Assembly (NCBI GenBank): GCA_001281695.1 | Contig: LJIE01000001.1 | Span: 3,619,521 to 3,683,520 of the forward strand | DNA: 64,000 nucleotides | Direction of reading: 5' to 3' | Source of the DNA: a bacterium 336/3 | GTDB lineage: Bacteria; Bacteroidota; Bacteroidia; Cytophagales; Thermonemataceae | Shown: positions 49,831 through 52,887 of the stretch, piece after piece | Layout: each line of letters opens with the position of its first letter | Numbering within the stretch: position 1 is the stretch's first letter | Notes under the pieces: model-generated | Told to the model about the DNA's origin: nothing | The model's input: only the letters and a program-made list of their open reading frames with translations | Databases searched by the model: none | Program-made: the position numbers and the translations under genes

Positions 49831-50601
49831 CTAGTTTTTAAAGCAATGATAGATAATTTCATCAGCAGGCAAAGCATATCTTTTTACTTTTTCAGGAGGA
49901 AGTTGTTTTACATATTCATCTTCTACCACTCTGAAACCAGCCAAAGAAAGTCTCTGGGCATAGTCACGTCCGTACATGCGTACATGGTCGTTTTGTCCAA
50001 ATGCCTTTTCTCTTTCTTGGGGAGAAGTAATCGTTTTGTCTTCATAGGTAGTTGCCAAGCTCAAATCCATAGGTGATTGAATAATAGCCCAACCCGTAGG
50101 TTTCAATACTCTTCTGATTTCACGCATAGCTTGCAAATCGTCCTCTACATGCTCCATAACATGATTGCAAAATACCACATCAAAATGATTATCCTCAAAA
50201 GGCATTTTATGAATATCCATTTTCACTTTGGCAAGTGGCGATTCTAAATCGGCAGTGATATACTCTTGTAAATTTTTGAGGTTCTCAAATCTATGAATAA
50301 AACAAACTTCTGGAGCAATATGTAATACTTTGAGTGGAGCCTGAAAAAAATCTGTTTTCTCTTTTAAAAACAACCACATCAAACGATGACGTTCTAAAGA
50401 CTGAGAATCGGGACAGAGAGCATTTTCTCTTGGGTGTATTCTGCCATAGGGCAAAAATTTTCGATAGGTTTTGCCAGAAATAGGGCATTCTACATTATTA
50501 CCTCTGTAAAATAAGCCTAAAAACTTTAAACCTATACCACTAACCAATTGTAAATATTTACGAGGAACAAATCTTATTAAAAAACTAATAATATATTTCA
50601 T
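49831..50601 (-). CDS. Class I SAM-dependent methyltransferase
   Basis: A 256-residue enzyme. The SAM-binding pattern is seen in LKVLHIAPEVCF (motif I), ITADLES, and FDVVFCNHVMEHVEDD (post-motif), followed by AMREIRRVLKPTGWAIIQSPM, the usual class I order. Two Cys upstream (VECPISG and ALCPDS) may form a small zinc-finger-like part in the first 70 residues, seen in some methyltransferases that act on sugars or lipids. The substrate is unknown. A clear promoter precedes the gene. Confidence 0.87.
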   Translation of the reverse strand: MKYIISFLIRFVPRKYLQLVSGIGLKFLGLFYRGNNVECPISGKTYRKFLPYGRIHPRENALCPDSQSLERHRLMWLFLKEKTDFFQAPLKVLHIAPEVCFIHRFENLKNLQEYITADLESPLAKVKMDIHKMPFEDNHFDVVFCNHVMEHVEDDLQAMREIRRVLKPTGWAIIQSPMDLSLATTYEDKTITSPQEREKAFGQNDHVRMYGRDYAQRLSLAGFRVVEDEYVKQLPPEKVKRYALPADEIIYHCFKN

Positions 50602-50621
50602 TTGACTTTGATTTCAGTCTG

Positions 50622-50650
50622 CAAATATAATGTTTCTTTTGTTTATCAAA
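50622..50650 (-). promoter_or_regulatory. Bacteroidota-type promoter for the methyltransferase
   Basis: On the minus strand TTTG (50647-50650) and TATATTTG (50622-50629) are 17 bases apart, an exact consensus. The -7 box ends 20 bases before the ATG at 50601. Confidence 0.8.
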
Positions 50651-50702
50651 GAGAAAAATGCTTATATTGATTTAAAGTCTCTTATGATAAATCTTGTTCA
50701 AA

Positions 50703-51413
50703 ATGTTCAAAAAAACAACTTTTCTTATTATGTTTTGTTTGTGTAACCATTTAGCTTTTACACAAAATAAGTATAAAGAATATATTTACCATTCTTACAA
50801 TGGTGATTTGTATGAGTTTTCATACAAATTATTACTATTTGAAAATAAAATATTTATGTATTTAATACAAAATATTTTTCATATCACTTATACTTATGAA
50901 TACTATGAGGGAACATTCAATACAAAAAATGATAAAATTTTATTTAGAAGAAATCCCATCAAAGTTTCTGATACTATACAACTATTACCACACATTACAA
51001 AAGTGGAAAAGAAAACAAATAATGTATTAAAAGCAAAAAAACAAAAATCTTTTAAATTTTATACCAATGAAGAAGAAATAGACACTATGAAATTAGCTTT
51101 ATATGCCAGTGTAATTAAAAATTTTGATGAAGATGGGGATGGTATAACAATTACAGATGAAAAACCTGTTATATTCAATAATTTAAAGGGAACAGACTTT
51201 ATAAAAATATTTGGACTGGGAGAGTATAGCTTTCAACCCATCAAAGTCATTCAAGATTTTGATAAATATGAAGAGTTTATAGTTTATATTTATATATACT
51301 CACCTCCTCATAACCCAGCAAATTATAAACAAATGCCATTTAGTGAAGCTAAAATAGAAGAAAATGAAAAGTATATTATTTTAAATGGCAGAAAGTTTGA
51401 AAGAGTCAAATAA
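50703..51413 (+). CDS. Exported hypothetical protein
   Basis: About 236 residues with a signal peptide (MFKKTTFLIMFCLCNHLAFTQ). The mature domain is rich in Lys, Ile and Tyr, probably all-beta, with no family I recognise. A TTG at 50694 is in frame, but the ATG at 50703 gives the better start. It is divergent from the methyltransferase. Its stop codon is followed in the same frame, without an intervening base, by the remnant of an oxygenase gene. Confidence 0.6.
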   Translation: MFKKTTFLIMFCLCNHLAFTQNKYKEYIYHSYNGDLYEFSYKLLLFENKIFMYLIQNIFHITYTYEYYEGTFNTKNDKILFRRNPIKVSDTIQLLPHITKVEKKTNNVLKAKKQKSFKFYTNEEEIDTMKLALYASVIKNFDEDGDGITITDEKPVIFNNLKGTDFIKIFGLGEYSFQPIKVIQDFDKYEEFIVYIYIYSPPHNPANYKQMPFSEAKIEENEKYIILNGRKFERVK

Positions 51414-51572
51414 TTACATCCTGAAACAAACAAATATTTAAGAGTGTTAAAATTTAAACCCATCACAGGAATGGCGTTATGTTTTATACATGAACAGAGG
51501 CATGAAGGTAGTCCCGTATTACTTGGCACAAAATATGCTTTGCGTTCGGATGTCATGTATAAAAATCTATAA
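51414..51572 (+). pseudogene. C-terminal remnant of a 2-oxoglutarate/Fe(II) oxygenase (prolyl 4-hydroxylase-like)
   Basis: Reading in the frame of the preceding gene, the 52 codons after its stop encode a segment ending in TAA that includes FKPITGMALCFIHEQRHEGS, VLLGTKYALRSDVMY. This matches the last part of the double-stranded beta-helix of 2OG-Fe(II) oxygenases: Pro-x-x-Gly-x-Ala-Leu-x-Phe, the metal-binding His of HEG, and the Lys of the GxKYxLRxDVMY block that binds 2-oxoglutarate. The N-terminal two-thirds, with the HxD half of the metal site, are missing. There is no start codon or promoter of its own, so it is most likely a deletion remnant. Confidence 0.75.
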
Positions 51573-51582
51573 CTCAAACTTT

Positions 51583-52887
51583 ATGATGCAAGAATCATTT
51601 TTGCATTTTTTGTGGCAATATCAATATTTTGAGCCTCATCGCCTCAAAACCACAGAAAATGAAACCGTAGAAATTTTGAACAGAGGTATCCATAATACCA
51701 ACGCAGGAGCAGATTTTGAACACGCTCATGTAAAAATTGATCAAATAGAGTGGCAAGGAGATGTTGAAATTCACATCAAAGCTTCAGATTGGCAAAAACA
51801 CCAACATCAAAATAATGAACGCTATAATCGGGTAGTTTTGCATGTAGTTTGGGAAAACGACATACCCATCAAAAGAGCTGATGGTTCATTGATACCTACC
51901 TTAGAACTTAAAAATCATGTAAAAAGTAATATTTTTCATCAGTACAAGTATCTTTCTGAAAATCAAAAAGATATACCTTGTGAAGCTCTCATTTTTGAAG
52001 GAGAACCTCTGTACTGGTTTATGATGATGGATAAAGCCCTGATTCAGAGACTTGAGAAAAAAGCAGACTTGGCAAGAAACATTTGGCTCTCTTGTGAAAA
52101 AGATTGGGAAGAAACTACATATCGTTTACTTGCTCAAAATTTTGGTTTTAAAATCAATAGCCATGCTTTTTTGAGATTGGCAGAACAAACACCACTCAAA
52201 TACATTTTGAAACACAGAGATAATCTAATACAAATTGAAGCTCTTTTATTTGGACAGGCAGGTTTTCTAGAAGGAGATACACAAGATGCTTATTTTGAAA
52301 CACTTCAGAAAGAATATAAATTTTTAAAAGCTAAATATCAGCTTGATTCTATCGAAAAAAGTGAATGGAATTTTTTGCGTTTAAGACCAGCCAATTTTCC
52401 AACCATTCGTTTGGCTCAGTTTGCTCAATTATTACATAAAAATGCAAACTTATTTTCTGTTTTATTGTATGCAGAGCAATTTAAAACGCTCAAGAGAATT
52501 TTAGACGCTGATGTTTCTGAGTACTGGCAAAGTCATTACCAATTTGGAAATATAACCCAAGAAAAAGCTCCTTCTAAATTGGGAAAAGGCAGTATTGAAA
52601 ATATCGTAATTAATACAATTGTTCCTTTGATGGTCTTGTATTCCCAAGAAAGTAAAAGGCAAGATTTGATGGATAAAGCCATTGATTTTTTAGAAAAAAT
52701 ACCCGCTGAAATCAATCATATCATAGAAAAATGGCAGAAATTAGGTGCTAATATTAAGAATTCTGCTGATTCACAAGCCTTGATAGAACAATATAATACT
52801 TCTTGTTCTCATAAAAAATGTTTGGAATGTACGATAGGAGTCAATATATTAGGCGTAAAAAACAAACAAGCAATACTCAAAGAGTAA
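51583..52887 (+). CDS. DUF2851 family protein
   Basis: About 434 residues starting MMQESFLHFLWQYQYF, the characteristic DUF2851 beginning (short FLH-xx-W motif). The frame is open upstream to 51490, but that extension overlaps the oxygenase remnant and is not conserved in type, so the ATG at 51583 (or 51586) is taken. The core has IEWQGDVEIHIKASDW and NRVVLHVVWENDIPI, the defining signature; a cysteine-rich C-terminus (SCSHKKCLECTIG) also fits. The family is common in Bacteroidota and of unknown function, with possible restriction-endonuclease-like fold (inference). Confidence 0.88.
   Translation: MMQESFLHFLWQYQYFEPHRLKTTENETVEILNRGIHNTNAGADFEHAHVKIDQIEWQGDVEIHIKASDWQKHQHQNNERYNRVVLHVVWENDIPIKRADGSLIPTLELKNHVKSNIFHQYKYLSENQKDIPCEALIFEGEPLYWFMMMDKALIQRLEKKADLARNIWLSCEKDWEETTYRLLAQNFGFKINSHAFLRLAEQTPLKYILKHRDNLIQIEALLFGQAGFLEGDTQDAYFETLQKEYKFLKAKYQLDSIEKSEWNFLRLRPANFPTIRLAQFAQLLHKNANLFSVLLYAEQFKTLKRILDADVSEYWQSHYQFGNITQEKAPSKLGKGSIENIVINTIVPLMVLYSQESKRQDLMDKAIDFLEKIPAEINHIIEKWQKLGANIKNSADSQALIEQYNTSCSHKKCLECTIGVNILGVKNKQAILKE

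What the first reader, a model, noticed from the sequence alone, without database searches (positions are those of the whole stretch)
51414..51572. Remnant of a 2-oxoglutarate/Fe(II) oxygenase directly after another gene's stop codon
52 codons immediately after the stop at 51413, in the same frame, encode the conserved end of a prolyl 4-hydroxylase-like oxygenase (Gly-x-Ala-Leu-x-Phe, HEG, GTKYALRSDVMY). The His, Lys and Arg of the active site are intact, but the front of the enzyme is missing. The remnant sits between a plus-strand exported protein and DUF2851, which suggests that an insertion or deletion replaced the first part of an oxygenase by the unrelated exported protein gene.
Basis: partly seen in the sequence, partly recalled or inferred. 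Interest (0 to 1): 0.55.

Follow-up and report, generated by a model that had tools for sequence, protein, structure and literature searches.

The report
Leftover tail of a lost oxygenase
About 42 codons between two bacterial genes look like the leftover tail end of a common iron-dependent oxygenase gene whose front has been lost: an ordinary gene remnant that very probably makes no working enzyme.

Summary
The stretch 51414-51569 is open. Its last ~42 codons (from about 51441) match the C-terminal end of PF13640-type, prolyl-4-hydroxylase-like 2OG-Fe(II) oxygenases. The profile score is 56.9 bits, against at most 12.0 in 20 shuffled windows. It is 46-72% identical to the 36 intact-length relatives aligned and keeps all 15 of their near-invariant positions there.

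The front, with the HxD iron ligands, was found neither in the window nor elsewhere in the 4.7-Mb genome. A full-length query finds only an intact oxygenase of another branch and this fragment; PF13640 adds one more distant gene. None of 39 homologous loci examined has the same short form. So it is best read as a pseudogene remnant.

Two refinements. The first ~27-33 bases after the stop have no counterpart in most relatives and are as AT-rich as the upstream gene (22% GC against 36%), so the break lies near 51441-51447 and the shared frame is probably coincidence. Whether the AT-rich gene replaced the enzyme's front or a deletion joined them cannot be told: none of 35 DUF2851 loci compared, mostly with ~1.5-kb flanks, has an oxygenase beside DUF2851. 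Interest is low.

The parts
51441..51572 (+). Oxygenase remnant proper: C-terminal ~42 codons of a PF13640-type 2OG-Fe(II) oxygenase plus its stop codon
   Evidence: Profile match 56.9 bits to residues 10-51 of the 52-aa stretch; 15 of 15 near-invariant positions kept; GC 36.4%
51414..51440 (+). Open but non-homologous 27 bases between the upstream stop codon and the remnant; probably 3' flank of the upstream gene
   Evidence: No counterpart in most relatives; GC 22.2%, like the upstream gene
50703..51413 (+). AT-rich gene for an exported-looking protein (signal-peptide-like start judged by eye), nearly without relatives; abuts the remnant (TTG 50694 is an alternative start)
   Evidence: GC 24.0%, lowest of 49 ORFs of 150 aa or more; only marginal matches elsewhere, none in phages; no curated family over its cut-off
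51583..52887 (+). DUF2851 gene (PF11013) downstream; first ATG 10 bases after the remnant's stop codon (alternative ATG at 51586)
   Evidence: PF11013 E 7.4e-143; start fits that of a relative

Best explanation
The stretch is the 3' end of a second 2OG-Fe(II) oxygenase gene of the prolyl-4-hydroxylase-like kind, which once lay just upstream of DUF2851 (the tail is shown; the former gene is inferred). A rearrangement removed its first ~140 codons, with the HxD iron ligands, and an unrelated AT-rich exported-protein gene now stands in front (absence of the front shown; the event inferred). The rest makes no enzyme and serves at most as leader RNA of DUF2851 (inferred).
For: Strong profile match confined to the C-terminal end (decoys). 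The front is absent from the window and was not found in the genome: a full-length query of a close relative found only the intact oxygenase L002 and this fragment, and PF13640 reported two long frames elsewhere and not this place. Of 39 homologous loci examined 36 are frames over 150 aa and none has the same short form. On the tree the fragment sits among the CFIHE-type enzymes and L002 in another branch, so it is probably not a duplicated tail of L002. Base composition steps from 22-24% to 36% GC at about 51441, where the homology begins.
Against: The 42 codons carry no stop or frameshift and keep 15 of 15 near-invariant positions, so decay is not visible inside the fragment; the loss may be recent, and 42 codons are too few for me to test selection. 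Its terminal branch is long (0.55, against 0.24 for its neighbour L084), but the alignment behind that number includes the non-homologous first residues. No relative with the intact gene at this place was found. FastTree support around the fragment is only 0.8-0.9 and rests on few columns.
Confidence: 0.9

Rival explanations
1. One replacement event: a foreign AT-rich segment with the exported-protein gene (about 50602-51440) was inserted and took the place of the oxygenase's front. This and the next row are two versions of how the remnant arose.
For: The block 50602-51440 is 22-24% GC against 33-36% in the methyltransferase gene, the remnant and DUF2851. The exported gene has almost no relatives: 1 other of 395 genomes of the phylum, at E 9.9e-4 (own genome counted in the 395), best other match among 59 related genomes E 0.001, no phage match.
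Against: No convincing end repeats: a 12-of-13 match between 50552-50564 and 51432-51444 was reached by 13 of 200 shuffles. Other window ORFs are nearly as AT-rich (25.6%, 26.3%, 26.9%), and orphan genes are often AT-rich without being recent insertions (general knowledge).
Confidence: 0.45
2. Plain deletion: exported gene, oxygenase and DUF2851 once stood in a row, and one deletion removed everything from just after the exported gene's stop to about codon 140 of the oxygenase.
For: One event suffices; the exported gene ends in its own stop codon and some AT-rich flank (51414-51440) remains before the homology starts.
Against: No relative with that order was found: 0 of 35 DUF2851 loci have an oxygenase in their flanks, most of which are only about 1.5 kb.
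Confidence: 0.45
3. A functional mini-protein or leader peptide, for example from GTG 51444 or ATG 51471, kept for translational coupling to DUF2851 ten bases downstream.
For: The frame is open with 15 of 15 near-invariant positions kept; the stop lies 10 bases before an ATG of DUF2851.
Against: The iron ligands HxD are missing; none of 39 loci examined shows the same form; RNA folding of 51414-51600 is no better than shuffles (z -0.35, 71 of 200 fold as well).
Confidence: 0.04
4. Readthrough or fusion makes one protein out of the exported protein and the oxygenase tail.
For: Same frame, directly after the stop codon.
Against: A third of random joins share frame; the first ~9-11 codons after the stop are not oxygenase in most alignments and have the composition of the flank; the exported part supplies no oxygenase front; no such fusion was seen in the 39 loci.
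Confidence: 0.01

Closest known systems
PF13640 2OG-FeII_Oxy_3 enzymes of the same order (L003, L004, L084-L087, L089), prolyl-4-hydroxylase-like
   Same: C-terminal 39 columns 69-72% identical, with the HEG, Lys and LRSDVMY segments
   Different: They are full-length frames of 183-189 aa stop to stop, with HxD (seen in the alignment for L003 and L004); the remnant lacks the first ~140 codons
Bacterial prolyl 4-hydroxylase structures 3itq / 5hv0
   Same: Intact relative L003 matches them at E 1.1e-11 and 1.2e-11
   Different: The fragment alone has no PDB sequence match; the substrate of this family is not known from my calls
The genome's own intact oxygenase at G000:C1:3415841-3416347 (L002)
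   Same: Over the PF13640 cut-off; 53% identical over 38 residues
   Different: Full length (185 aa) and on another branch of the tree
Pseudogene remnants, e.g. the broken relative in L011
   Same: L011 has an oxygenase start (20.0 bits) and end (51.0 bits) in two different frames with the middle missing
   Different: There both ends survive side by side; here only the tail

Membership tests
PF13640 2OG-Fe(II) oxygenase (functional member) | HxD iron-binding motif ahead of the C-terminal His | tested here: not met
   The region that holds it in relatives is absent; no match to it in the window or, with a full-length query, in the genome apart from the intact L002
PF13640 2OG-Fe(II) oxygenase (functional member) | C-terminal His with downstream Lys/Arg for 2-oxoglutarate | tested here: met
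   His30, Lys40 and Arg44 of the fragment are invariant in 36 of 36 relatives aligned; roles recalled, not tested
PF13640 2OG-Fe(II) oxygenase (functional member) | Score over the Pfam cut-off of 27 bits | tested here: not met
   No Pfam family for the 52 aa, and PF13640 did not report this place in the genome; three intact relatives tested pass (L002; L003, L084)
Curated NCBIfam oxygenase families (FlmC, PRK05467) | Score over the curated cut-off | tested here: not met
   Fragment: no family. Intact L002 and L003: only weak matches, at most 26.4 bits against cut-offs of 143-240
Pseudogene remnant | Significant homology to part of a family of longer intact genes, with an essential part missing | tested here: met
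Pseudogene remnant | Not conserved as a short form in relatives | tested here: met
   0 of 39 loci with the same form; no match in the three same-genus genomes. Further short frames in the table (G140, 55 aa; G064, 122 aa) were not examined
Pseudogene remnant | No functional product | not testable with these tools
   No expression data

The most novel reading that the evidence does not exclude
The remnant has been kept as a short translated leader (from GTG 51444 or ATG 51471) whose stop, 10 bases before DUF2851, couples translation to that gene: an oxygenase tail turned into a regulatory leader.
Probability: 0.03. Interest if true: 0.3.

Novelty: new member of a known kind. Interest (0 to 1): 0.08.

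Why it matters
It matters little beyond annotation: it explains an odd open frame between two genes, suggests the loss of one of two oxygenase branches in this lineage, and warns against calling a 42- or 52-aa 'oxygenase' here. Deletion remnants of dispensable enzyme genes are common in bacteria (general knowledge).

Tried and rejected
Curated-family and PDB searches with the 52 aa alone gave nothing; homologous loci were needed. I looked for the missing front in the window in six frames and in the genome: not found.

I looked for the ancestral gene order around DUF2851. First, nine loci were compared with the window's proteins; seven of them are DUF2851 loci. These loci mostly reach about 1.5 kb to each side (up to 6 kb for L078-L083, less at contig ends), and L031/L078 and L032/L079 are apparently the same genomes, so a gene further off would be missed. 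One search listed matches in 23 further genomes without loci, which I did not look at. In the 39 oxygenase loci the only window protein matched at E 1e-6 was the fragment. In G011 an oxygenase and DUF2851 lie about 18 kb apart on one contig; not followed up.

Recombination repeats: the 13-base pair at 50552 and 51432 is within chance (13 of 200 shuffles). The 27-base pair 51220-51246 / 51442-51468 (20 of 27) was reached by 0 of 200 simple shuffles. But it was picked after seeing it, both copies are still present, and a deletion between repeats would leave one, so I draw nothing from it. RNA structure of the leader: not better than shuffles. No match to a recalled Bacteroidota-type promoter pattern falls between the exported gene and DUF2851; weak sigma-70-like matches there (e.g. 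51385-51414) are within chance numbers, 13 found in 50500-51800 against 9.3 +- 2.8. Papers: search listings with starts of abstracts only. 'Raineya orbicola' gave 6 papers, a three-term search on bacterial prolyl 4-hydroxylase gave none; no paper was opened.

Errors of mine: nine minus-strand loci were translated in the wrong direction, so that alignment was discarded and redone. In one search the codon-position GC of DUF2851 is one base out of frame and is not used.

Full report
What is there. The + strand gene 50694/50703-51413 (an exported-looking protein of 236-239 aa) ends with TAA; 51414-51572 continues in the same frame for 52 codons to the next stop. DUF2851 (PF11013, E 7.4e-143) follows, with ATGs at 51583 and 51586, i.e. 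10 or 13 bases after that stop; the start of a relative fits these (L079 begins MREDFLHFIWQ, here MQESFLHFLWQ).

Homology. The 52 residues alone matched nothing in Pfam, NCBIfam or the PDB. Searched against translated genomes they matched an intact 185-aa gene of the same genome (53% over 38 residues, E 2.1e-7). They also matched in 18 of 59 related genomes at E 1 or better (several of these near chance) and in 48 of 390 genomes of the order at E 1e-4 or better; the own genome is among those counted. A profile from 17 intact relatives, without the fragment, scores it 56.9 bits (E 2.9e-16) over residues 10-51; the next place in the window scores 4.4 bits, and the best of 20 codon-shuffled windows 12.0 bits. 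Three intact relatives pass the PF13640 cut-off, and one, L003, matches bacterial prolyl 4-hydroxylase structures (3itq, 5hv0; E about 1e-11). NCBIfam gives the two tested (L002, L003) only weak matches far below cut-offs.

What is missing. In relatives the segment is preceded by about 140 residues that include the HxD motif (HIDG, HQDG and the like). That part is not in the window. In the genome (13 contigs, 99.33% complete) a full-length relative finds only the intact L002 and the fragment. PF13640 finds L002 and one more distant gene (open frame 310 aa), not the fragment. Without the HxD ligands the fragment should not be a working enzyme (inference from recalled chemistry of the family).

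What is kept. All 15 positions that are the same in at least 34 of the 36 aligned relatives are kept in residues 10-52, among them His30, Lys40 and Arg44. There is no stop or frameshift. This is evidence of a recent loss or of a kept function; the stretch is too short to tell.

Where the break is. Residues 1-9 have no counterpart in most relatives. BLAST alignments begin at residues 10-19 in nearly all loci, and at 4 or 7 only in L006, L090 and L009, which carry an extra loop there. Composition agrees: 51414-51440 is 22.2% GC, like the exported gene (24.0%) and its upstream spacer (23.9%), while 51441-51569 is 36.4%. The junction is therefore near 51441-51447, and the shared frame with the upstream gene is probably a one-in-three coincidence.

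Which oxygenase it was. Over 39 aligned columns the fragment is 69-72% identical to L003, L004, L084-L087 and L089 and 49% to the genome's own L002. On a FastTree it sits with the CFIHE-type enzymes (next to L084, local support 0.81), while L002 sits in another branch. The lineage therefore probably once had both types and kept one; the placement rests on few columns, and the fragment's own branch is long (0.55).

Is the short form conserved? Of the 39 homologous loci I examined (18, counting the own paralogue L002, and 21), 36 lie in open frames of more than 150 aa. The other three are L011 (start and end in different frames, middle missing), L097 (a stop splits an otherwise full gene) and L102 (front and end in two overlapping frames). 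None has the same form. Two more short frames in the table (G140, 55 aa; G064, 122 aa) were not examined. The three same-genus genomes have no match at E 1 or better.

How it arose. The genus is probably Raineya: same-genus genome G003 gives the same DUF2851 locus as the named Raineya sp. SKYG86 (L078), and G002 the same as R. orbicola (L079) (inference). In 35 DUF2851 loci compared, mostly with about 1.5 kb to each side, there is no oxygenase and no other window protein, so there is no ancestral arrangement to compare. The exported gene is the lowest in GC of 49 window ORFs of 150 aa or more, the next being 25.6% and 26.3%. It is nearly without relatives: a marginal match in a same-genus genome, E 0.001, one other of 395 phylum genomes at E 9.9e-4, none in phages, and a below-cut-off DUF6515 match, E 0.0085. 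This fits a foreign or orphan gene and hence a replacement, but a deletion that joined a resident orphan gene to the oxygenase tail fits as well. I give the two equal weight.

Verdict. An ordinary remnant of a lost second oxygenase, correctly spotted; its in-frame position after the stop codon is probably not meaningful. Function, if any, is as leader sequence of DUF2851; no RNA structure supports more (z -0.35).

Noticed in passing
L011, about 1310-1630 (genome G021): A relative of the same oxygenase is also broken: start and end lie in two different frames close together, with the middle missing, which suggests an independent loss.
   Followed up: partly
L097 (genome G077) and L102 (genome G089): Two more relatives are split, one by an in-frame TAG and one by a frame change; real decay or sequencing error was not decided.
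   Followed up: no
window 50602-51440: A sharply AT-rich block (22-24% GC against 33-36% in the adjoining genes) that holds one exported-protein gene nearly without relatives, the lowest in GC of 49 window ORFs of 150 aa or more.
   Followed up: partly
window 51220-51246 and 51442-51468: A 27-base direct repeat (20 of 27 matches), one copy in the exported gene and the other starting at the inferred breakpoint; picked after the fact and unexplained.
   Followed up: partly
whole window: The recalled Bacteroidota-type promoter pattern TTTG-N17-24-TANNTTTG occurs 17 times against 7.8 expected (0 of 100 shuffles reach it); one site, 50622-50650 on the minus strand, lies just upstream of the methyltransferase gene.
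   Followed up: no
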